Positions 47,876-60,792 of a stretch of DNA of 64,000 bases are shown here, piece by piece. How positions within the stretch are numbered: position 1 is the first letter of the stretch; every line of letters begins with the position of its first letter. The notes below the pieces were generated by a model. It was given only the letters and a program-made list of their open reading frames with translations, searched no databases and was not told the origin of the DNA. Source of the stretch: an uncultured Bacteroidota bacterium (GTDB lineage: Bacteria; Bacteroidota; Bacteroidia; Flavobacteriales_F; PHOS-HE28); NCBI GenBank assembly GCA_902826215.1, contig CADEDY010000002.1:124001-188000 (forward strand), in the 5' to 3' direction. The position numbers were made by a program, and so were the translations under genes.

Positions 47876-49822
47876 ATGGGCAAGACCGACCCCACCTATC
47901 CGCTCCTTAGTGGGATCCAACTTCCAGAGGATCTTCGGAACCTGTCCGAAGAGCAGTTGCAACAGGTTTGCACCGAACTGCGCGACTTCATCATCGATGT
48001 GGTCAGCGTGAAGGGTGGCCACTTCGGTGCCAGCTTGGGCGTGGTGGAGCTTTCCGTTGCCTTGCACTACGTGTTCAATACACCATACGACCAATTGGTC
48101 TGGGATGTGGGCCACCAAGCCTACGGCCACAAGATCCTTACCGGGCGGCGCGACATTTTCCATACGAACCGCATCCACAGAGGATTGAGCGGCTTCCCGA
48201 AGCGCAGCGAAAGCGAATACGATACGTTCGGCGTGGGGCACAGCAGTACCAGCATTGGTGGGGCTTTGGGGATGGCCGTCGCCAGCAAGTTGAAGGGCGA
48301 AACGGATCGCCATTGTGTAGCCGTGATCGGCGATGGTGCCATGACGGCCGGTATGGCGTTCGAGGCCCTGAACCATGGCGGCACCGCGAACAGCGACCTG
48401 CTCGTGGTGCTCAACGACAATTGCATGAGCATCGACCCGAACGTCGGTGCACTGAAGGAATACCTCACGGACATCACCACCAGCCACACCTATAACAAGG
48501 TGAAGGATGAAGTCTGGAAAGTGCTCGGGAAAGTGAGCAAGTTCGGCCCGAATGCACAGGCCGTTGCGCAGAAGGTGGAGAACGCTGTGAAGAGCGCTCT
48601 TCTGAAGCAGAGCAACCTGTTCGAAAGCCTTCGGTTCCGCTACTTCGGCCCAGTGGATGGCCACGATGTGGACCACTTGGTGAAAGTGCTGCGTGACCTG
48701 AAGGACATCCCTGGCCCGAAGATCCTGCACATCGTTACCACCAAAGGCAAGGGCTATGCTCCGGCCGAGGCGGGTAGCCCAACAGTATGGCATGCGCCAG
48801 GGCTCTTCAACAAGGAGACCGGCGAGATCATCAAGGTGGTGCCCAAGAGCCCGCAACCGCCCAAGTATCAGGATGTCTTCGGGCATACCATCGTGGAGTT
48901 GGCCGAGAAGAACGAGAAGATCGTTGGTGTGACACCCGCCATGCCCACAGGCTGTTCGCTGAATATCATGATGAAGGCCATGCCCGACCGCGCCTTTGAC
49001 GTAGGCATCGCTGAGCAGCACGCCGTCACCTTCAGCGCCGGCATGGCCACGCAAGGATTGATCCCGTTCTGCAACATCTACAGCTCATTCATGCAACGTG
49101 CGTACGACCAGGTGGTACACGACGTGGCCTTGCAGAACTTGAACGTGGTTTTCTGCCTGGACCGCGGCGGATTGGCAGGTGCCGATGGCCCGACCCACCA
49201 CGGTTCGTACGACCTCGCCTATTTCCGTTGCATTCCGAACATGATCGTGAGTGCCCCGATGAACGAGGAGGAGTTGCGCAACCTCATGTATACCGCGCAG
49301 CTGCCCGAACAAGGCCCCTTCAGCATCCGCTACCCGCGTGGCGAGGGGGTGATGACGGAATGGAAGACGCCGTTCAAGGAGATCAAGATCGGTACCGGTC
49401 GCAAGCTGCGCTCAGGGACGGATGTCGCAGTGCTGTCCATCGGGCACATCGGCAACATCGCTGCCAAGGGGATCGATGCCCTCGAAGCGGATGGATACAG
49501 TGTGGCCCATTATGACATGCGCTTCGTGAAGCCGCTGGACGAAATGTTGCTGCACGAGGTCTTCGGCAAGTTCAAGCACGTGATCACCATTGAGGATGGC
49601 TGCATCCAAGGCGGCATGGGCAGCGCCGTGCTGGAGTTCATGGCCGATCATGGATACAGCGCGCAGGTGAAACGCCTCGGCATTCCCGATCGCTGGGTAG
49701 AGCATGGCTCACAGAAGGAGCTTTACGCCGAGTGCGGCTTCGATGAGGTGGCCGTGGTGGCTGCCGTGAAGGAGATGCTGGCCGATCAGAAGGTGAGCAA
49801 AGGGAAACGGGCCAGCGCTTGA
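47876..49822 (+). CDS. dxs: 1-deoxy-D-xylulose-5-phosphate synthase
   Basis: A 648-residue thiamine-diphosphate enzyme that joins pyruvate and glyceraldehyde 3-phosphate in the first step of the methylerythritol-phosphate route to isoprenoids, including the menaquinone side chain used by complex [17 protein letters not shown], the ThDP motif [18 protein letters not shown] through [12 protein letters not shown], and the transketolase-like [21 protein letters not shown] are all present, with the C-terminal domain complete. Transcribed divergently from nuoA. Confidence 0.97.
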
Positions 49823-49844
49823 TCCGGCGTAAGGGTCCCGGAAG

Positions 49845-50840
49845 CTATCTTTTCGTCAGTCTGGCGCTACCTAACGTGCCATTCGTGCCCACCCAGGAAA
49901 GGGTGTATTGCCCGGCAGGCACACTGGCCACATCCAGGGTAAGCCGTCGCGTTTGGGGCGAGTTGAACTCTTCCAACCACTGCAAGGCAACGGTCCCTGT
50001 CCCATCGACCAACTGAAGTATGGTCCGGTCCGCTTTGGGTGCTGGTAGGTCAACGGTAATGATGTCCACACAGGGGTCCGGGAAGGGCCGCAGTGCGATG
50101 GGTTTGAAGAGGCTCGATGGATCTTCCTGCCAAGAACCATCCAACCAGCGCATGATGCGATCGGGCGGCGCCCAACCGCTGCGTTCGGTGATCACGAGGA
50201 GCGGCATCGGGGTCTTCGGGCTGTACCAGGCATAGCGCGTTTCGCTGCGCACGGGCGATTGCCTGTAACGTCGGTCAAGGAATACCAGATCACTGCGAAC
50301 GCGAAGGACATTGGAGACCACGCCGTATGGCATGATCAGCGTGCCCCAAGCGTCCGCCTTCACGATGTGCCGTACCTCTAGGATCGACATGCGACCGGCT
50401 CCCGTCACAGCGACAATGGCCGAATCGATCCATTGATCGTTCATGTTGTTGGGAACGAGCAACTCGCGCAAGGGCGGGTCGAAGCGAAGCAGCGCGGTGT
50501 CCGAGTAGGTGCCCATCCACATCAACGCGGTATCCAATTCCAAGAAGTAGGCGGCTGGCTCACCCGGAACTTGCCGAACCAATGAATTGGCCGGGAATGC
50601 ACCTGCACCCGGTGCAATGTCGGTGGTGGACCACGTGTAAGGAACCAACGTGCCGGTCGGCAGGTTGCTATAGTCCCAGCGCAGCGCTTCACCTGGTTGA
50701 CCAGCTTTCAGGTAAGGGATGTCGTGATACCCGAAGACACTGCCCGTGATCGGCATGATGTTGTCATCCAACACAGGCTGGGCGACCAATGCGATCGAAC
50801 GCGCGATGATCAGCAGGGCGAGCAAGCGTGTTAGGGTCAT
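49845..50840 (-). CDS. Secreted protein with T9SS type A sorting domain
   Basis: A 331-residue exported protein: signal peptide TLTRLLALLIIARSIALVAQ, a beta-rich unique body (about 20-245), and a C-terminal 80-residue domain, LRPFPDPCVDIITVDL to RLTKR, which fits the T9SS type A signal (FPNPxxD-like start, GxxVxxW in the middle, LDVASVPAGQYTLSW, and a basic end). It should be secreted and lipopolysaccharide-anchored at the surface. The body has no recognised domain. Its ATG overlaps the stop of the upstream polytopic membrane protein gene (ATGA, 50837-50840), so the two are translated together. Confidence 0.87.
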   Translation of the reverse strand: MTLTRLLALLIIARSIALVAQPVLDDNIMPITGSVFGYHDIPYLKAGQPGEALRWDYSNLPTGTLVPYTWSTTDIAPGAGAFPANSLVRQVPGEPAAYFLELDTALMWMGTYSDTALLRFDPPLRELLVPNNMNDQWIDSAIVAVTGAGRMSILEVRHIVKADAWGTLIMPYGVVSNVLRVRSDLVFLDRRYRQSPVRSETRYAWYSPKTPMPLLVITERSGWAPPDRIMRWLDGSWQEDPSSLFKPIALRPFPDPCVDIITVDLPAPKADRTILQLVDGTGTVALQWLEEFNSPQTRRLTLDVASVPAGQYTLSWVGTNGTLGSARLTKR

Positions 50841-52252
50841 GGGTTGAATTTAAGGGTTCGATCAGTTGGCCAAGGTGTATTGGTCCGTTCGAACGTGTTT
50901 TCGGTCCATCGACACCAAATGTCCGTATCGAGAAGATCGATCCTCGTGCCTCTAAAAGTGATGTATGTCGCGCCCTTGTCATCGGTACGTAGGTCGGTGG
51001 CACGGACGTCGATCAGTAGTGCCTCTTTTTTTCCAGCAAGCAGCACCGCCTCCGTGAAGCCATTCCGGAAGATGAAGGCACCACGGTACGCATCCGGCAG
51101 ATCGAGCAGATAGGCCGGGCCTTCCGGAAGGTGTTCTAGGATGCTGCGCGTCTGGTCCGAAGCCACCCGCCAATGCGACTGACCGATGCGTTGTTGGAAC
51201 ATAGAACCGACAAGGAGCAGGCCCATCAACGCGGTGCGTGGGATCCGGGATGGAACTCGAGCAAGGAATGAGGCGACCAATGCTGCTAGGAATGCGGATG
51301 CGAGATAGAGGTAGCGATCGCTCTCACTGGTGCGTGTGCTCACGGCGCCGATCATCGGGATGAGCAGGGAAAGGGCCATCCACCACCACCAAATGCGTGG
51401 GATGAATTTCGGAGCACGTCCTTTCCAAAGAAGGTACGCTGCAGTGATCGCAAGGAGCCCGAGCAGCAAGCCACCCTTGATGAGTTGTTGATCCGAATTC
51501 GGGTCGGGTGGCAGGAAAAGGCGTACAAGGACTTTGGGAAGGTTTATGATGAACGCGCCATGCTTCCAAGCGAAGAGTTGGTTGAGGTAGGAGTCGGGGC
51601 TCCATCCAACGGCCAACGAACGAGCCAAGAGATAGGCTGAACCAGAAACAAGCATAGCATACATGAAGGTGCGCCGCTCCGTTCGCTCGGTCATCGGAAG
51701 CAGGAACAAGGGAAGAAGAAGTGCGCTTTCGTAGCAAAGCGCTCCAGCGAACAGGATGGAGCCGACAACCCAGTATCGACGCGGTGAACGCGAACTCGTC
51801 GCGATCAACAGGCCGGCAAGAATGGTCGTTGTGCCCAGTACTGATTCCCGGCCGACCAACCAGATCACGCTTTCCTGATGGAAGGGATAGGCAACGAACA
51901 ACAGTGCTGCCGCCCAAGCGGTCCAGCTGCTGGCCGTGTTATCGTTCTGGCCTCTGCTCCGAACCAGTTGGAAGAGCAGGTATGCATTCGTCCCATGCAA
52001 CACGATGTTGAAGCACCGATGTCCGAAGGCTTCCGAACCCCATATCCAATAGCCTACCCGGAAGGTGAGGTCGGACAACGGACGGAAGAAGCCATTGCGC
52101 CAGGGAATACCGTTCACACCCGCATTCCACAAAGCAGAGTGATCATCGCTGAAGGCCGAGAACCCGAGTGTTCCTCCATGGGTCAGGAATGACGCGATGA
52201 TCAGGACCGGCAGGGCGATCCATGTGTTATAGCGTGTCGTGCTCCAGATCAT
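50837..52252 (-). CDS. Polytopic membrane protein, GT-C/TMTC-like
   Basis: A 471-residue membrane protein with roughly 10 helices and a C-terminal soluble stretch of about 100 residues. The first loop SFLTHGGTLGFSAFSDDHSALWNAG and WRNGFFRPLSDLTFRVGYWIWG, followed by FNIVLHGTNAYLLF and FVAYPFHQESVIWLVGRESV, resemble TMTC-type mannosyltransferase-like proteins (lipid-linked sugar donors). A catalytic Asp pair could be that in SDDHS. Specificity is unknown. An ATG at 52252 is used rather than a TTG at 52264. It overlaps the T9SS protein gene and has a TAGCTTTG box 9 nt upstream. Confidence 0.78.
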   Translation of the reverse strand: MIWSTTRYNTWIALPVLIIASFLTHGGTLGFSAFSDDHSALWNAGVNGIPWRNGFFRPLSDLTFRVGYWIWGSEAFGHRCFNIVLHGTNAYLLFQLVRSRGQNDNTASSWTAWAAALLFVAYPFHQESVIWLVGRESVLGTTTILAGLLIATSSRSPRRYWVVGSILFAGALCYESALLLPLFLLPMTERTERRTFMYAMLVSGSAYLLARSLAVGWSPDSYLNQLFAWKHGAFIINLPKVLVRLFLPPDPNSDQQLIKGGLLLGLLAITAAYLLWKGRAPKFIPRIWWWWMALSLLIPMIGAVSTRTSESDRYLYLASAFLAALVASFLARVPSRIPRTALMGLLLVGSMFQQRIGQSHWRVASDQTRSILEHLPEGPAYLLDLPDAYRGAFIFRNGFTEAVLLAGKKEALLIDVRATDLRTDDKGATYITFRGTRIDLLDTDIWCRWTENTFERTNTPWPTDRTLKFNP

Positions 52253-52261
52253 GATGGCGTT

Positions 52262-52269
52262 CAAAGCTA
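52262..52269 (-). promoter_or_regulatory. -7 box of the TMTC-like gene
   Basis: TAGCTTTG on the minus strand matches TAnnTTTG exactly, 9 nt before the ATG at 52252, giving a leader of only a few nt. It supports that start over the TTG at 52264, which lies inside the likely transcription start. Confidence 0.5.
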
Positions 52270-52288
52270 GATGGCTTCCGCTCTACCG

Positions 52289-52296
52289 TAAGTTCG
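52289..52296 (+). promoter_or_regulatory. Possible -7 box of the plus-strand GT-C-like gene
   Basis: TAAGTTCG differs from TAnnTTTG at one position and ends exactly 4 nt before the ATG at 52301, the same spacing as four other candidate leaderless promoters in the window. It is back to back with the minus-strand box at 52262. Confidence 0.35.
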
Positions 52297-52300
52297 CTGC

Positions 52301-53764
52301 ATGTCCCGACGCGAGGTGCTCGTTCTGCTCTGTGCCTTCGCTCTCAGCGTGGCCGTGCGCTGGCCCTTGCTCAACAGGCCGCTCTCCGCTCATCATGAGT
52401 ATTGCACGGCCTTCACCCTGATCGCCCTGTCCAATTGGTATGATGATGGTTTTGCGGCACATCACGGGGTACCTTCCGGTGGTTGGGTCAAAGAAGGTGC
52501 GAGCTTGTACGCTGACACGTTCGATCGGAATGAACGCGCGGTCGGGGTCTATTACTTCTCGCATCCGCCATTGGCCTACGATATCCCGTACGCGGTGTTC
52601 CGGCTCCTCGGTGTGGCGCCGAACGTCGTCGGGCTTCAGGCCATCAACGTGTTCTTTCAACTGATCGCCATCGGAGCCTTGTTCTTCGCGGTGCGTTGGG
52701 GCTGGCCGCAGGCACCCTCGTTCGCAGCCCTCTTCGCGTCCGTGTTGTATTGCTTCTTGCCCGCAACACTTTGGTTCCATGGCAACGCGTACATGAGCGA
52801 CCTGTTCGTTCAGGTGCCTTGGCTGTTGCATGTGGCTGCTGCAGTGCGCATGTTCCGTTCACCATCCTACGTTGCTCGACGTGATCTTTTCTACTTCGGG
52901 CTTACCCTCTTTCTTACCGTGTACACCAGTTGGTTGGGTGTGTTCGCCGGTGCTGCTGCAATCGTGTTCGTTGGTCTACGATGGTGGCGGGATCGAAGGG
53001 CTCCATTGGCTTCTGTGATCCTCGTTGTGTTCTTGGCCGTCGGTTCCGCACTTGCGATCACAGCGTGGCGATATCTTCAGGTGATCGACGCAGGAGCGCT
53101 TTGGGCACAGATGGCTTCGCGTTTCGCGGCGCGCGGCTCATTCGATCCGAGCGCAGGGATCACCGTACATCTCCGCCAACTGATCGAGAACTATCGCATC
53201 GGTTTCCTTCCAGTCCTCTTGCTGCTCGCTGGGCTACTATTCCATCGTTCCATTGTGCGGAAGGAACGCCTCCGGATCCCGGTCGATGGTTCGGCCTTCC
53301 TCGTACTGACCGGCTTGCCCGTGGTTTTCGACCACGCATTCCTGCTTCAATATGCCGACCATGACTTCGCAGCGCTGAAGGCCGCTCCTTTCCTCTGCGG
53401 ATGCGCGGGTGTGTGGCTCTCAAGGGTCCCATTCCGAGCTGCTGCGATCGCATTGAGCGCGACCTGCCTGGCGGGTGTGCTCTACTTCTATCGTCTCAAC
53501 CCCTTGCCGGGGAAGGACCACGGTCGGTACACGCAGGAGATGGAACTCGGTCACTTCATCGCGGAGAATGCATCGCCGGATGAAGTGGTGTTCGCCATCG
53601 GTCTTTCAACCGAACCGCAAGTTGCATGGTATGCCCGGCGCAATGTGATCGGCATTGGAACAATAGAAGATGCTCGACAATTCCTTGTTGAGCACGAAGC
53701 AGAGCGAGGAGTGGTCTTCCGCAAGCAAGGTGATTCCACTTCCGTGGAACACATCATGCGCTGA
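52301..53764 (+). CDS. Polytopic GT-C-like membrane protein
   Basis: A 487-residue membrane protein with about 10-11 helices. The start RWPLLNRPLSAHHEYCTAFTLIALSNWY has the Arg-Pro-Leu and acidic/His first loop of lipid-phosphate-sugar glycosyltransferases (ArnT/PMT type), and SHPPLAYDIPYAVFRLLG resembles their second-loop HPPL motif. The last 100 residues are soluble (ENASPDEVVFAIGLSTEPQVAWYARR). It probably moves a sugar from a polyprenyl-phosphate donor to an extracytoplasmic acceptor, but this is by resemblance only. It diverges from the TMTC-like gene and converges with the next GT-C-like gene, 3 nt between stops. Confidence 0.78.
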   Translation: MSRREVLVLLCAFALSVAVRWPLLNRPLSAHHEYCTAFTLIALSNWYDDGFAAHHGVPSGGWVKEGASLYADTFDRNERAVGVYYFSHPPLAYDIPYAVFRLLGVAPNVVGLQAINVFFQLIAIGALFFAVRWGWPQAPSFAALFASVLYCFLPATLWFHGNAYMSDLFVQVPWLLHVAAAVRMFRSPSYVARRDLFYFGLTLFLTVYTSWLGVFAGAAAIVFVGLRWWRDRRAPLASVILVVFLAVGSALAITAWRYLQVIDAGALWAQMASRFAARGSFDPSAGITVHLRQLIENYRIGFLPVLLLLAGLLFHRSIVRKERLRIPVDGSAFLVLTGLPVVFDHAFLLQYADHDFAALKAAPFLCGCAGVWLSRVPFRAAAIALSATCLAGVLYFYRLNPLPGKDHGRYTQEMELGHFIAENASPDEVVFAIGLSTEPQVAWYARRNVIGIGTIEDARQFLVEHEAERGVVFRKQGDSTSVEHIMR

Positions 53765-53767
53765 TCC

Positions 53768-55555
53768 TCATTTCCGCTCGAAGACCTGCACCCGTAGATC
53801 GTCGATGAGGTGCGCACCGCCGTGCTGGTTCCAGACGTACACCTTCATCCTGTCGTTCACGGAGCGCACTTCCGGCGTGATGTATTCCACGGTCGCGGTC
53901 ACCCAAGTGTTCCATGTTCCCGGAGGTATGGACCAAGCGACGGCTTTGTACTTGTACGCGGCATTGTCGTGCTGGAAGCTCACCACGATGCTGGGCGGAG
54001 CTTGGGTCGTATCTCCCACCCACAGCCGGGCCGTTGTGCGGATCCATGCATGATCCGTCCAGGTAAGATCCTTGTACGGCACGTCTGGCCCAGGACTGAA
54101 CGGACTTTTTGCGGTGAGCAGTAGTACGCTGTCGGGTCTATCGTCGAACCGATCCATGAACAGGTCTCTGCCGTTGTACCGTTCCTCATCGGTGAAGTGC
54201 TCTACCTGCGTGAGCGGGCGCTGTACGAGTAGCAGTTCCTCAGCATTCGATGGCGGTGCGGTGCGACCGAGAACGGCCATGAAATACGGTCTCGTCATGC
54301 GCTCCTTGCTGAGGATGCCCTGTGACCATTGCCAGGTCTGGAAGAGATTCAGAAGGATCGCCGTGCCGAGGCCGATCAGCATCGGAACGCGCACCCACTT
54401 CCTCGACCATAAAGTTCGTAGGAATATGCCAAGCGGGATAGCAAGCAATGGATAGGTGGGCACCATGCTCCTTGCGCTGAAGCTGCCACCAGCGTACCAC
54501 CAACAGCTCCAACTGGAGACCACCCAGAGGTCGGTGATCAAGAAAATGGCGATGGCCCATGCAGCGGCCGGTAGTCGTCTCCAAAGCAACGGAATGCCAC
54601 AGATGGCAAGGAGCATCAGCGGCGTGTAGATGAACCACCCCTTCCGGAAACTGACGAGGTAGGGCCAGGTGTGCGGTTCCGTGAAGTCGAAGCCTTCCCC
54701 TGGGTTCACGTATGAATAGAACACCCACTGCCCGGTGACGCTCTTCCAATAGATGAGCTGTGGAAGGGTGGCCATCAGGAATGCAACTCCTGCAAGGCCG
54801 ATATGCCCCGGATGTTGATTGATGCATTTCCACTTGGAGGTGCGATCAGTTGCACTTCCAAGTCCCCAGAGCAGGGGGATCAACGCACACACCAATTCCG
54901 AAGGCCGTACCAAGGTGATGAAGCCGACCAACCCGCCGATCCACAAGGAGCGAGAAGTGGACGGCGATCGGTGCCACTGGATGGTCACTAGGATCAGTCC
55001 GGCGTAAAGGGTGAACAGGAACGAATGGGTGAGGAGTGTCCCATCCCACGCCGTGAGTTGGAAATAGTTGGTGCCCAAGGCGATGAGAACGAGCAGCAAA
55101 GCCGTCCATCGATCAGGGAAATAATGAAGCAGGATCCGTCGGAAGAGGAAGAGGCTGAAGAGAGCAAAGGCCAAGCAACCGATCGTAATGCTCACTTGGT
55201 ACGGTGCCGAGAAACCATCCGATGGGTAGCCCAACGGCCCGGCCAGCGCATGTGCGATGAAGAAGAATGGCGCATACATCACGGCCATCCCCGAGCTGTA
55301 CTTGATCACCCGGCTGCCATTCGGGCCGTCGACCAATTGATAGAGCGTGGACGACGGTTCGTACGTGGTCATCACTTCGTCCAACCAAGCCGGGTCATGG
55401 AGCCCGATATCGTCATGGATGAAGGTGGCCGGCAGATAGAGGTAATAGCCGAAGACATCCCAGGTAAGCACGTCGCGCTTCGGCGCGGACCAGCGTGCCG
55501 CAACGATCAACAAGACCATGGCCCAAAGGACCAAGCGTGATTCCCTGCCGGACAT
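53768..55555 (-). CDS. Polytopic GT-C-like membrane protein with extracytoplasmic C-terminus
   Basis: A 595-residue membrane protein with about 10-11 helices up to residue 410 and then a soluble, beta-rich 180-residue domain. DVLTWDVFGYYLYLPATFIHDDIG provides the acidic first-loop residues expected of GT-C enzymes, and HTWPYLVSFRKGWFIYTPL and WSCWWYAGGSFSARSMVPTYPLLAIPLG are typical of glycosyltransferase-family-39-like proteins. The C-terminal part (VWNQHGGAHLIDDLRVQVF) resembles a jelly-roll carbohydrate-binding fold. Substrate unknown. Its promoter box ends 4 nt from the ATG. Confidence 0.78.
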   Translation of the reverse strand: MSGRESRLVLWAMVLLIVAARWSAPKRDVLTWDVFGYYLYLPATFIHDDIGLHDPAWLDEVMTTYEPSSTLYQLVDGPNGSRVIKYSSGMAVMYAPFFFIAHALAGPLGYPSDGFSAPYQVSITIGCLAFALFSLFLFRRILLHYFPDRWTALLLVLIALGTNYFQLTAWDGTLLTHSFLFTLYAGLILVTIQWHRSPSTSRSLWIGGLVGFITLVRPSELVCALIPLLWGLGSATDRTSKWKCINQHPGHIGLAGVAFLMATLPQLIYWKSVTGQWVFYSYVNPGEGFDFTEPHTWPYLVSFRKGWFIYTPLMLLAICGIPLLWRRLPAAAWAIAIFLITDLWVVSSWSCWWYAGGSFSARSMVPTYPLLAIPLGIFLRTLWSRKWVRVPMLIGLGTAILLNLFQTWQWSQGILSKERMTRPYFMAVLGRTAPPSNAEELLLVQRPLTQVEHFTDEERYNGRDLFMDRFDDRPDSVLLLTAKSPFSPGPDVPYKDLTWTDHAWIRTTARLWVGDTTQAPPSIVVSFQHDNAAYKYKAVAWSIPPGTWNTWVTATVEYITPEVRSVNDRMKVYVWNQHGGAHLIDDLRVQVFERK

Positions 55556-55559
55556 GGCA

Positions 55560-55567
55560 GAAAGATA
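55560..55567 (-). promoter_or_regulatory. Candidate leaderless promoter of the 595-residue membrane protein
   Basis: TATCTTTC on the minus strand, one base off TAnnTTTG, is followed by 4 nt (TGCC) and the ATG at 55555. It lies in the 33-nt gap after the start of that gene and the accC stop. Confidence 0.4.
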
Positions 55568-55588
55568 GATGCGAACCAGAAGGCCTAT

Positions 55589-56935
55589 CTACCCCGGCTT
55601 CTTGATCTCGAAATCCTCCAAGAACTTGGTAGTGAAGACGCCCTTGCGGAACTGTTCGTTCTGCATCAGCTGCAAGTGGAATGGGATGGTCGTGTTCACG
55701 CCTTCGATGACGTACTCGCTCAAGGCGCGCTCCATTTTGGTGATCGCCTCTTCGCGCGTTTGGGCGCTCACGATCAATTTGCCGATCATGCTGTCGTAGT
55801 TCGGTGGGATCGTGTAGCCTGCGTACACGTGGGTGTCCACGCGCACACCGTGCCCTCCCGGACTGTGATAGCTGGTGATCTTGCCCGGTGATGGACGGAA
55901 GTCGTTGAAGGGATCCTCCGCATTGATGCGGCACTGGATACTGTGGCGCGTGGGTTCGTAGTTCAAACCACTGATCGGGATGCCCGCTGCGATCTTGATC
56001 TGTTCGCGGATCAGGTCGTAGTCGATCACCTCTTCCGTAATGGTATGTTCCACCTGGATCCGGGTGTTCATCTCCATGAAGTAGAAGTTGCGGTCCTTGT
56101 CCACCAAGAATTCCACGGTGCCGACCCCTTCGTAGTTCACGCTCGCCGCTGCCTTGATCGCCGCTTCGCCCATCTTCTTTCGCAAGGCCTTCGTCATGAA
56201 CGGCGACGGCGTTTCCTCCACCAGCTTCTGGTGACGACGTTGGATGCTGCAGTCGCGCTCGCTCATGTGGCAGAACGTGCCGTACTGGTCGCCTGCGATC
56301 TGGATCTCGATGTGGCGTGGCTCCAGGATGTACTTCTCCATGTACATGCCCGCATTGCCGAAGGCGGCACCCGCCTCCTGGCTTGCCTTCTCGAAGGCTT
56401 CTTGGAACTCTTCTTCTTTCCAAACGAGGCGCATGCCTTTACCACCGCCACCGGCCGTGGCTTTCAGGATCACGGGATAGCCGATCTTCTTAGCCTCCTT
56501 CTTCGCGACGGCGAGGTCCGTGACCAGACCTTCCGTGCCTGGCACGCAGGGAACGCCCGCAGCGATCATCGTACTCTTGGCCGTGGCCTTGTCGCCCATC
56601 GCCTCGATCTGTTCGGGCAGGGCGCCGATGAACTTGATGTTGTGCTGCTGGCAGAGCTTGCTGAACTTCGCGTTCTCGCTCAGGAATCCATAGCCCGGGT
56701 GGATCGCATCCGCGTTGGTGATCTCTGCCGCAGCGATGATGCGCACCATGTTCAGGTAGCTCTCTTTGCTAGGCGGCGGGCCGATACAAACAGCTTCGTC
56801 CGCGAAGCGCACATGGAGGCTTTCCTTGTCGGCGGTGCTGTATACGGCCACCGTCTTTATACCCATCTCACGACAGGTGCGGATCACGCGCAGGGCGATC
56901 TCGCCGCGGTTGGCGATGAGGATCTTCTTGAACAT
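55589..56935 (-). CDS. accC: Acetyl-CoA carboxylase biotin carboxylase subunit
   Basis: A 448-residue ATP-grasp enzyme that carboxylates the biotin on AccB, the first half-reaction of malonyl-CoA synthesis. [32 protein letters not shown] (ATP loop), and [18 protein letters not shown] with the metal-binding acidic residues and the catalytic Arg of the RIQVEH type are present. It lies 9 nt after accB. No carboxyltransferase gene is in the window. Confidence 0.97.
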
Positions 56936-57448: not shown

Positions 57449-57573
57449 GGCTGGCGAAGGTAGGGAAGGATGTGTTTTTCGACGGATGGCCCAAAAGCCT
57501 TTGGTAAAGTGTTGGCGAACAGGGGAATACACGACCGCTTTCACCTCGTTCGGGCAGGCTTATGGCATCAAGT

Positions 57574-58566
57574 TCAGCTTCCATACGCCCACTTGAGCCA
57601 GATCGCCCCCCACGTGAATCCGCCGCCGAATGCCGAGAGGATCACGTTGTCGCCCTTCTTCAAACGCGATTCCCATTCCCACAAACACAGCGGAATGGTG
57701 CCGCTCGTGGTGTTGCCGTATTTCTCGATGTTCACCATCACCTTGCTGTCGTCCAGCCCCATCCGGTTCGCAGTGGCGTCAATGATGCGCTTGTTGGCCT
57801 GATGGGGTACCAGCCAGGCTACGTCGTCCGCGGTCAGGCCGTTCTTCTCCATGATCTCGGCGCTCACATCGGCCATGTTCGTGACAGCGAATTTGAAGAC
57901 CGCCTTGCCTTCCTGATAGACGTAGTGCTCCTTCCGCTCAACGGTTCGCTCGGTACTGGGGCGCATCGACCCGCCGGCCTTCTGGTGCAGGTGTTGGCAA
58001 CCGCTACCGTCGCTGCGCAGGATCGTATCCATCACTCCTACGTCCTCCATGGTGGGCTCCAACAGCACCGCCCCGCAACCGTCACCGAAAATGATGCACG
58101 TGGTGCGGTCCTCGTAGTCGATGATGCTCGACATCTTATCGCCGCCCACGACAACCACTTTCTTGTGCTTGCCGCTTTCGATGAACTGACTGCCCGTGCT
58201 CAATGCATAGAGGAATCCGCTGCACGCCGCCATCAGATCGAAGCCCCAAGCGTTCTTGGCGCCGATCGCATCACAGATGATGTTGGCGGTTGCAGGGAAC
58301 ACGCGATCGGGTGTCACCGTCGCCACGATCATCAGGTCGATCTCGTCAGCTCCGATGCCGCGCTTCTTCAACAGACCGTTCACCGCTTCGACCGCCATGA
58401 CGCTGAGGCCCTGGTCCTTGCCGGTCTGGATCCGTCGCTCGGTGATACCGGTGCGCTCGGTGATCCAGGCATCGCTGGTCTCCACCATGGTCTCGAGCAC
58501 TTTGTTGCTCAGTTTGAATTCCGGTACATATCCATTCACGGCGGTGATGGCGGCGCGGGTCTTCAT
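57574..58566 (-). CDS. fabH: Beta-ketoacyl-ACP synthase III
   Basis: A 330-residue thiolase-fold enzyme that starts fatty acid synthesis by condensing an acyl-CoA with malonyl-ACP. The triad is complete: Cys115 in [10 protein letters not shown], His in [11 protein letters not shown] and Asn in [10 protein letters not shown]. It precedes accB and accC on the same strand, linking malonyl-CoA supply with initiation. The usual plsX/rpmF neighbours do not lie upstream; instead a divergent CotH-kinase gene does. Confidence 0.97.
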
Positions 58567-58701
58567 GGGTCGAGGCGTTGTTCTCTAGCGGCCTCCGGGA
58601 GCGATGGATACCCGTGGTATGGTCCGAAAGAGGGTGCCAAGGTATTCATCGGTGCGATCCACCTCAATGGTGCATGGGGTCTTCGGCAGATCGGAGCCGC
58701 C

Positions 58702-58709
58702 TACTTTTG
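58702..58709 (+). promoter_or_regulatory. Candidate leaderless promoter of the CotH-kinase gene
   Basis: TACTTTTG on the plus strand fits TAnnTTTG exactly and is followed after 4 nt (GTCC) by the GTG at 58714. The box supports GTG as the start. No TTG stands at -33. Confidence 0.5.
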
Positions 58710-58713
58710 GTCC

Positions 58714-60792
58714 GTGCGGTTGCTTGTGCTCTTCGTTGCATTCGGTCTTGCGGAATGGAGTTCTGCGCAGTCCTCTGTTGTCATCAACGAACTGCAGGGA
58801 GCCAACCGGAATACCGTCATCCAAGCGGATGGCAGCACACCTGATTGGATCGAACTGTACAACACGGGTGATAGCCTGATCGATCTTGCAGGGATGCGTT
58901 TTTCCGTGGTCGGAAGAATGCATGTTCTGGAGGCACAGCTCTCCATTGCACCAAAGGAGCACCTCCTGCTTTGGTTCGATGGCCATCCCGAACGGGGTCC
59001 ACAGCATGTGGGGTTCACCTTACCGCGCAAAGGCGGGACCTTGCTGCTGATCGCCGCCGACGGGGTGAACATGCTTGATGTCTTCACCTATCCGGCCATG
59101 GCCGGTGACCTCAGCATCGGTCGTTTGCAGGATGGCAGTGCGGCATGGACCTACTTCGAATGCCCAACGCCGGGCAAGCCGAACAACGGAGAGCTGGAAC
59201 TGCATGGCCGAACGTTGACGCCGGGGATCGACAGCTCCCGCACCGCGCATTCCGATACACGCGAAGTGGCACTTCTTGCTGAGCACGCGGATCGTATTCG
59301 GTACACCACCGACGGCACGGAGCCGACCTTGATCAACGGTTCCGACTATACCGGACCGATCACCTTCGACCGTGATCTGGTGATCCGCGCTCGTGCCTAT
59401 TCATCCACCGCGCTGCCGAGCAAGGAGTTCTGTTCCACCTACAACATGGAAGGCCTCGCGGATGTCGGAATCACCATCGCCATGGACCAGGAAGGCCTTT
59501 CGGATGACAGCATCGGCATCAATGTGGAAGGCGCGTTGGCCAACTTCAGCAGACGCGGCCGTGATTGGGAACGGCTGGCCATGGTGAAGTTCAATGGCAC
59601 AACGGATGTGCCCATCCCCATCGGGATCAGTATCCACGGTAGCGGATCGCGAAGCCTGCCGAAAAGGTCCTTCAAGCTGCACGCACGCGACCGATACGAT
59701 AGTCCGGTGAAGGGACTGCGCCTTTCGGGGGAAGAGCATTTCCAGGAAGGTATCCTGCGGGCCGATGCTGGGGCCCACACATTCTTGCGAAATCGTTTCA
59801 TGGAATGTTTGGTACTGTCCAATGACCTGCATGTGGATGTACAACCTTCTATTCCCGTGCCGCTGTACCTGAACGGTCGATATTGGGGACTCTACCGTTG
59901 GATGCCCCCCAAGGACAAGCAATGGCTGGAGCGAATCAGTGGCAGTGAAGCAGTGGATGTGCTCGAAGGACCTGCTGCGGTCGTGCGCTCGGGTAGCGAT
60001 TCCCATTTCAAACCGGCGATGGCCCAGCTCTTCGGCGGTGCACCGTTGGATAGTATCGCCGCGCACATCGATGTAGCCAACCTGATCGACCTCGCCTGCC
60101 TGGATCTGTACACGGGTCGGGCAGATCATGACCTCAATGTGCGCTGCTATCGGCCTCGCTTGGCGGATGGTCGTTGGAGGTGGGTGCTTTACGATATGGA
60201 CCTGTGGGCGCCGGCCGGGGAGAACAGCGTGGAGCGCATGGCTTCGGCTTCCGGCTCAGAAACCCCGTACATCCCACAACTCTTGCATCAACACGAACTG
60301 CGGAACGCCCTACTGGCCCGCATGACGGCCTTGCTCGCAACGGCTTTGTCCCCTGCGAAAGCACAGCGGTTGGCCGACAGCGTGTACGACGCATCCTGCG
60401 AGGAACTGGTCGCTGATCACGAGCGCTGGCAGCCGGAAATGGATCGGCCGGATCCAGAAGCGTGTCACGAGGCACTCGCGACATTCATCCAGCAGCGCCC
60501 CACTGACCTGATCTCCTTCCTCAGCGAACGAACAGGCCTTCGAACACGCTCTGTAACGATCGAAGTGCCATCGGTCGAACGCGGCGCCATGCTCCTCGAA
60601 GGATTACGCTTGCCTTCGGGAACACAACGTATCATCTGTTTCGAAGACGTTCTGCTGGATGTGGAAGTGGTTCCGGTTGAGGGCCAGAGCCTACTGAGTT
60701 GGCGAGGTGCCGATGGCGCCGGAACCAAAGTGACGATCGATCCGGAGCATACGCGGACCTTGCGGCCGAACCTCGTTCCTGCCGTGCCGTGA
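58714..60792 (+). CDS. Secreted lamin-tail / CotH-kinase protein
   Basis: A 692-residue exported protein from a GTG that opens the signal peptide RLLVLFVAFGLAEWSSAQ. Order of domains: lamin-tail domain (SSVVINELQGAN to about residue 140), a chitobiase/FN3-like module with IRYTTDGTEPT near 195-205, then a CotH protein-kinase-like domain (about 245-600: GISIHGSGSRSLPKRSFKLHARDRYD, DLYTGRADHDLNVRCYRP, WRWVLYDMDLWAPAG). CotH proteins of spore formers are atypical kinases; outside them such LTD-CotH proteins are common but uncharacterised. I see no clear T9SS sorting domain at its end. The frame stays open upstream over fabH, but that is antisense and lacks an ATG nearby. Confidence 0.87.
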   Translation: MRLLVLFVAFGLAEWSSAQSSVVINELQGANRNTVIQADGSTPDWIELYNTGDSLIDLAGMRFSVVGRMHVLEAQLSIAPKEHLLLWFDGHPERGPQHVGFTLPRKGGTLLLIAADGVNMLDVFTYPAMAGDLSIGRLQDGSAAWTYFECPTPGKPNNGELELHGRTLTPGIDSSRTAHSDTREVALLAEHADRIRYTTDGTEPTLINGSDYTGPITFDRDLVIRARAYSSTALPSKEFCSTYNMEGLADVGITIAMDQEGLSDDSIGINVEGALANFSRRGRDWERLAMVKFNGTTDVPIPIGISIHGSGSRSLPKRSFKLHARDRYDSPVKGLRLSGEEHFQEGILRADAGAHTFLRNRFMECLVLSNDLHVDVQPSIPVPLYLNGRYWGLYRWMPPKDKQWLERISGSEAVDVLEGPAAVVRSGSDSHFKPAMAQLFGGAPLDSIAAHIDVANLIDLACLDLYTGRADHDLNVRCYRPRLADGRWRWVLYDMDLWAPAGENSVERMASASGSETPYIPQLLHQHELRNALLARMTALLATALSPAKAQRLADSVYDASCEELVADHERWQPEMDRPDPEACHEALATFIQQRPTDLISFLSERTGLRTRSVTIEVPSVERGAMLLEGLRLPSGTQRIICFEDVLLDVEVVPVEGQSLLSWRGADGAGTKVTIDPEHTRTLRPNLVPAVP

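What the first reader, a model, noticed from the sequence alone, without database searches (positions are those of the whole stretch)
49845..55555. T9SS protein translationally coupled to a GT-C-like membrane protein, beside two more
The T9SS-type gene begins inside the stop of a TMTC-like membrane protein (ATGA at 50837-50840), and two other polytopic GT-C-like proteins lie within 3.4 kb. This suggests that a lipid-sugar-dependent glycosyltransferase acts on the coupled secreted protein, linking glycosylation with T9SS export.
Basis: inference. Interest (0 to 1): 0.5.

Follow-up and report, generated by a model that had tools for sequence, protein, structure and literature searches.

The report
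Sugar-transferase gene beside a secreted-protein gene
A bacterial membrane enzyme of the sugar-transferring GT-C type sits directly in front of a gene for a secreted surface protein, but relatives show that the two often part company in a swappable stretch of the chromosome, so a dedicated enzyme-and-target pair is possible yet unproven.

Summary
The anatomy is real. On the minus strand, B (52252-50837) ends in TGA inside the ATG of A (50840-49845), giving ATGA at 50837-50840. C (52301-53764, +) and D (55555-53768, -) are further polytopic proteins. B is a GT-C protein: its AlphaFold2 model (pLDDT 89.9) matches only GT-C-type enzymes at the top (VIA Z 22.3 to STT3B), and a DD pair, E175 and R313 are conserved. 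It resembles TMTC proteins without TPRs or DUF1736. A is an all-beta secreted protein with a sub-threshold T9SS tail. C and D remain unproven as GT-C.

The coupling is weak. Ten relatives with B directly before A have gaps of 10-45 bases, so ATGA is seen here only. In 45 genomes of the genus, A is in 14, B in 18, both in 12, adjacent in 11. A occurs without B (2) and B without A (6), even in the same dxs-accC slot. In a second family B lies beside the sortase PorU2, but a control shows mostly slot synteny.

New and testable: A orthologues keep two O-glycosylation-type D-[ST]-x sites in 14 of 14 (0 of 16 paralogues), also in the two without B. Best reading: a swappable envelope-glycosylation cassette; "B modifies A" about 0.15.

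The parts
49845..50840 (-). Gene A, 331 aa: signal-peptide-like N-terminus, all-beta body, T9SS type A-like C-terminal domain
   Evidence: ORF; Por_Secre_tail 18.2 bits, cut-off 27; AF2 model pLDDT 66; alignment of 12 orthologues
49848..50093 (-). C-terminal sorting-type domain of A (residues about 250-331)
   Evidence: 253-320; weak fold match to RemA CTD 8gl6_D
50526..50534 (-). D-T-A at A residue 103: D-[ST]-x in 14 of 14 orthologues, 0 of 16 paralogues
50493..50501 (-). D-T-A at A residue 114: D-T-x in 11 of 14 orthologues
50418..50426 (-). D-S-A at A residue 139: D-[ST]-x in 14 of 14 orthologues (third residue mostly G)
50837..50840 (-). ATGA overlap of B stop and A start
   Evidence: sequence; junctions in relatives
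50837..52252 (-). Gene B, 471 aa from ATG (475 aa from TTG 52264): GT-C membrane protein, TMTC-like core without TPR
   Evidence: AF2 pLDDT 89.9, pTM 0.91; Foldseek and VIA
52142..52147 (-). DD motif of B (D36 D37), first extracytoplasmic loop
   Evidence: D36 invariant, D37 at least 90% in 33 rows; TMTC motif M1
51314..51316 (-). R313 of B in the DRxLY stretch (TMTC motif M7)
   Evidence: invariant in 33 rows; motif from PMC7801869
52301..53764 (+). Gene C, 487 aa polytopic membrane protein, divergent from B; GT-C status inconclusive
53768..55555 (-). Gene D, 595 aa polytopic membrane protein with soluble C-terminal part; possible PMT_2-type GT-C
47876..49822 (+). dxs, one border of the variable slot
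   Evidence: name from recall of the sequence
55589..56935 (-). accC, other border of the variable slot
   Evidence: name from recall of the sequence

Best explanation
The block is a swappable cassette between the housekeeping genes dxs and accC. B is a GT-C glycosyltransferase-type membrane protein with an intact-looking active site; it most likely takes a sugar from a polyprenyl-phosphate donor and puts it on an envelope glycan or exported protein on the periplasmic side. C and probably D are companions in the same cassette. A is a T9SS cargo of a large paralogous family that usually shares the slot, and here the transcript, with B, but is not B's obligate partner. Shown: gene order, overlap, B's predicted fold and conserved residues, separability. 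Inferred: activity, donor, acceptor, cotranscription.
For: GT-C fold of B (58 chains at Z 8 or more; the 50 entries shown are all GT-C-type by title and recall). Conserved D36, E127, W131, E175, R313 in 33 homologues. Slot survey: of 14 genomes with dxs and accC on one stretch (13 plus the window) the content varies: A in 9, B in 10, A without B in G015, B without A in G003 and G030, C alone of the four in G005 and G066, none of A to D in G007. B stands divergently beside C in 15 of the 18 genomes with B (in one of the 15, G009, B runs over a contig break); G065 and G016 are cut at B's 5' side by contig ends; G034 lacks C.
Against: A and B co-occur more than independence would give (12 both, 2 A only, 6 B only, 25 neither of 45; Fisher p 4e-5, phylogeny ignored) and are adjacent in 11 of 12, which leaves room for a real functional link. 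B and C co-occur about as strongly (p 2e-4).
Confidence: 0.58

Rival explanations
1. B is a dedicated O-glycosyltransferase for A: it glycosylates A in the periplasm at conserved D-[ST]-x sites before T9SS export.
For: Adjacent, co-directional in 11 of 12 genomes that hold both; overlap here; D-[ST]-x conserved at two sites in 14 of 14 A orthologues, and 0 of 16 unlinked paralogues match the motif there; motif total 23 against 9.2 expected in 12 A orthologues, 12 against 17.1 in 16 paralogues. The O-oligosaccharyltransferase of T. forsythia's system was called unknown in PMC8729774 (passages).
Against: Sites persist in G015 and G027, which lack B in draft assemblies of 69% and 82% completeness; 6 of 18 genomes have B without A; orthologues are not independent and the sites may be structural; the general system could serve A without B.
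Confidence: 0.15
2. B belongs to T9SS cargo anchoring: it adds a sugar to the glycolipid to which a PorU/PorU2-type sortase joins cargo.
For: In 12 loci outside the genus B lies on the same strand downstream of PorU2; 14 of 28 genomes of family f26 with both have B within 13 kb downstream, same strand (counted by eye).
Against: Control: in 20 PorU2-bearing genomes without B, tyrS-PorV2-PorU2 is fixed in 20 and ribE follows within 10 kb in 11, and where B is not in that position it is still near ribE in 9 of 14, so slot synteny explains much. In the window's genus PorU2-type genes are in 45 of 45 genomes, B in 18, and the 12 PorU2 loci mapped hold no B.
Confidence: 0.1
3. The adjacency is accidental: short intergenic spacing in a slot that collects unrelated genes; B has no bearing on A or on T9SS.
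For: Both genes are lost or kept separately in the same slot; gene gain and loss on a dxs tree coincide on only 2 branches out of 10 A and 8 B changes; the overlap is limited to this genome.
Against: Same order and strand kept in 11 genomes that fall in several places of a single-gene tree.
Confidence: 0.17

Closest known systems
TMTC1-4, O-mannosyltransferases with TPR (PF08409 TMTC_DUF1736)
   Same: DD in the first loop, RP after it, E in the third loop, DRxLY/ERxxY in the fifth loop; a distant B homologue with TPR carries PF08409 over the cut-off (L190)
   Different: B has no TPR, no DUF1736 hit, Y174 in place of the motif M4 lysine, and a short soluble C-terminal part instead
ArnT (5ezm, 5f15) and PMT/OST-type GT-C enzymes (STT3, PglB, AglB, Pmt4)
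   Same: fold (VIA Z about 20-22 over roughly 330-380 residues)
   Different: 8-12% identity; acceptor and donor of B unknown
T9SS type A cargo (Por_Secre_tail, TIGR04183/PF18962)
   Same: A has a signal-peptide-like start and a C-terminal beta domain with an FPDP...L...G.Y pattern
   Different: A scores below the curated cut-off
General O-glycosylation system of Bacteroidota (D-[ST]-x motif; PMC8729774)
   Same: A has conserved sites of the extended motif
   Different: no tie between B and that system was found; its transferase is reported there as unknown

Membership tests
GT-C glycosyltransferase superfamily (gene B) | GT-C membrane fold | tested here: met
   pLDDT 89.9; top Foldseek rows AglB, PglB, ArnT, STT3; VIA Z 22.3, rmsd 4.7, 372 residues aligned with 6s7t_A
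GT-C glycosyltransferase superfamily (gene B) | acidic residue(s) in the first extracytoplasmic loop | tested here: met
   D36 invariant, D37 in at least 90% of 33 homologues
GT-C glycosyltransferase superfamily (gene B) | transferase activity with a lipid-linked sugar | not testable with these tools
   needs biochemistry
TMTC family (gene B) | DUF1736 domain (PF08409) | tested here: not met
   no hit for B or among 17 rows (B and 16 homologues) at E 0.1
TMTC family (gene B) | C-terminal TPR region | tested here: not met
   471 aa, no TPR hit
TMTC family (gene B) | motifs M1 (DD), M4 (KE), M7 (ERxxY) | tested here: inconclusive
   DD, E175 and DR-x-LY present; the M4 lysine is Y174; other motifs only partly matched by eye
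GT-C (gene C) | GT-C fold or family hit | tested here: inconclusive
   no Pfam hit of use; hhalign to B probability 93.5, E 2e-7; no structure run
GT-C (gene D) | GT-C fold or family hit | tested here: inconclusive
   1 of 8 members over the PMT_2 cut-off; hhalign to B probability 1.4; no structure run
T9SS cargo (gene A) | type A C-terminal sorting domain | tested here: inconclusive
   18.2 bits against cut-off 27; weak fold match to RemA CTD
T9SS cargo (gene A) | host has T9SS genes | tested here: met
   PorU2-type gene with a PorV2-like neighbour and a second, lower-scoring PorU-type gene in G000
dedicated enzyme-substrate gene pair (A and B) | partners not found apart | tested here: not met
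   A without B in 2 of 14, B without A in 6 of 18 genomes

The most novel reading that the evidence does not exclude
The B family is a T9SS-associated GT-C transferase: in this genus it O-glycosylates the neighbouring cargo A at two conserved D-[ST]-x sites before export, and in a second family it works beside PorV2-PorU2, making it a candidate for a missing protein glycosyltransferase of Bacteroidota.
Probability: 0.1. Interest if true: 0.68.

Novelty: new member of a known kind. Interest (0 to 1): 0.32.

Why it matters
The enzyme that joins O-glycans to proteins in Bacteroidota was reported as unknown (PMC8729774, a passage on Tannerella forsythia seen), and few links between GT-C enzymes and T9SS cargo are known to me (recall). 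A family of TPR-less TMTC-like proteins with a confidently predicted fold, a cargo neighbour with conserved candidate sites, and paralogues without the sites as a built-in control make a clear experiment possible. If the pair turns out to be only slot-mates, it is a caution against reading function from a 4-base overlap.

Tried and rejected
ATGA as conserved coupling: rejected, seen in the window only among 11 junctions. PorU2 adjacency as strong evidence for a T9SS role of B: downgraded after the control. A D-[ST]-x signal made by B: not supported, as sites persist without B. PADLOC scan of A to D: no hits. PDB sequence-profile searches: nothing useful; A2 gave one chance hit (Psa28, E 0.72), A3 one weak hit (3rpc, E 0.011, not pursued), A1, A4 and A5 none. 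Promoter and terminator scans: no more than shuffles. The A model (pLDDT 66) is too weak for naming its body; Foldseek gave no hit at E 0.001 or less. Gene trees of A and B (12 genomes) were built but only looked at, not tested; the dxs tree is a single gene with 6 short sequences, so the change counts are rough. NCBIfam gave no support for any of A to D.

Full report
What is there. On the minus strand gene B runs from ATG 52252 (or TTG 52264) to 50837 and gene A from 50840 to 49845; they overlap as ATGA at 50837-50840. No start codon lies upstream in A's frame before a stop. C (52301-53764) is on the plus strand, divergent from B; D (55555-53768) is on the minus strand. The block is bordered by dxs and accC.

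B is a GT-C protein. B itself has no Pfam hit; of 17 rows (B and 16 homologues) 3 reach PMT_2 weakly (best E 0.012) and 3 reach EpsG. With 33 rows, the window's B and 32 homologues from titled genome contigs, AlphaFold2 gave pLDDT 89.9 and pTM 0.91. Foldseek's best rows are AglB, PglB, ArnT and STT3, best E 2.2e-4. VIA-align gives Z 22.3 (6s7t_A), with 58 chains at Z 8 or more. Invariant residues include D36, E127, W131, E175 and R313. Against the TMTC motif list of PMC7801869 (passages read), B has DD, RP, the third-loop glutamate and a DRxLY in place of ERxxY, but not the third-loop lysine, DUF1736 or TPR. Some distant homologues bear TPRs and one carries PF08409 over its cut-off. B is therefore TMTC-like, not a TMTC member.

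A is a T9SS-type secreted protein. The C-terminal domain matches Por_Secre_tail below the cut-off. The A model is all beta but of low confidence (pLDDT 66), with a weak match to the RemA CTD. A belongs to a paralogous family: 7 matches in its own genome, itself included.

C and D are polytopic. C is the commonest of A, B and C in the genus (24 of 45 genomes, against 18 for B and 14 for A). One of 8 D members passes the PMT_2 cut-off. Neither was folded, so 'two more GT-C proteins' stays open.

Is the pair kept? In 45 genomes of the genus A is found in 14 (E 1e-30 or less), B in 18 (E 1e-20 or less), both in 12. In 11 of the 12 B directly precedes A on the same strand; in G062 a 1257-aa ORF with a TraB/PrgY/GumN domain lies between. 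In G009 B is split over two contigs. A without B: G015 (same slot) and G027 (elsewhere). B without A: G003 and G030 (same slot), G010, G058, G016 and G065. The ATGA overlap is found in the window alone; ten relatives have gaps of 22, 26, 25, 23, 30, 27, 10, 11, 45 and 34 bases by the chosen starts. Fisher's test for A with B gives 4e-5 and for B with C 2e-4, ignoring phylogeny. On a dxs tree of 43 genomes parsimony needs 10 changes for A and 8 for B, of which 2 fall on the same branches.

A wider look. A scan of genome contigs found 37 loci. Outside the genus, 12 of them show B downstream of PorU2 (NF052324, E 1.8e-261 for the L126 copy) and, in most of the loci where the contig reaches that far, PorV2 before it (NF052325, E 2.4e-165 for the L125 copy), often with carbamoyltransferase, SxtJ, SGNH and radical SAM genes. 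In 142 genomes of family f26 B is in 30 and PorU2 in 100; of the 28 with both, 14 have B downstream within 13 kb on the same strand. The control weakens this: in 20 PorU2-bearing genomes without B the order tyrS-PorV2-PorU2 holds in 20 and ribE follows within 10 kb in 11, and among the 14 genomes where B is not in that position, 9 still have B near ribE. So B sits in a variable slot there too. In the window's genus PorU2-type matches are in 45 of 45 genomes, 41 over the cut-off, and none of the 12 PorU2 loci mapped holds B.

Candidate glycosylation sites. The Bacteroidota O-glycosylation motif is D-[ST]-[AILVMT], with an extended third position (PMC8729774, passages). At A residues 103 and 139 all 14 orthologues have D-[ST]-x of the extended form; at 114, 11 of 14 do. 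None of the 16 paralogues examined matches at 103 or, with the extended form, at 139 (four paralogues have D-[ST] at 139 with W or Y next). Counts over the body of A: 23 against 9.2 expected in 12 orthologues, and 12 against 17.1 in 16 paralogues. The orthologues are related, and the two without B keep the sites, so this marks A as a possible glycoprotein more than it marks B as its enzyme. The same paper's abstract reports a bias against O-glycosylation of abundant T9SS cargo in P. gingivalis, which would make A unusual if it is modified.

Literature. Searches for 'PorU2' gave 0 papers and PorV2 or PorU-like with 'type IX secretion' gave 1 (one passage search of it). A search joining type IX secretion, glycosyltransferase and TMTC gave no title on such a pair among the 20 listed of 148. 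Nothing seen describes this cassette; these searches cover only the held open-access library.

Verdict.

Noticed in passing
L120, L122, L123, L125-L129, L131, L132, L135, L137: Putative sortase PorU2 and PorV2 followed by a variable cassette (carbamoyltransferase, SxtJ, SGNH, B-type GT-C, radical SAM) in the stretch before ribE; the cassette content changes between genomes.
   Followed up: partly
L153:8986-15216 (G000 C17): The window's genome has a PorV2-PorU2 pair of its own, beside a gene that looks like apolipoprotein N-acyltransferase (name from recall); PorU2-type matches are in 45 of 45 genomes of the genus.
   Followed up: partly
L105:9591-13364: A 1257-aa ORF with an N-terminal TraB/PrgY/GumN domain lies between B and A in G062.
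   Followed up: no
window 47876-56935, slot between dxs and accC: The dxs-accC interval is a variable slot in the genus, with A, B, C, D and other genes in different combinations.
   Followed up: yes
window 57562-60792: Long plus-strand ORF whose later part looks like a secreted lamin-tail/CotH-type protein (recall from the sequence); its listed start runs antisense over the fabH-like gene.
   Followed up: no
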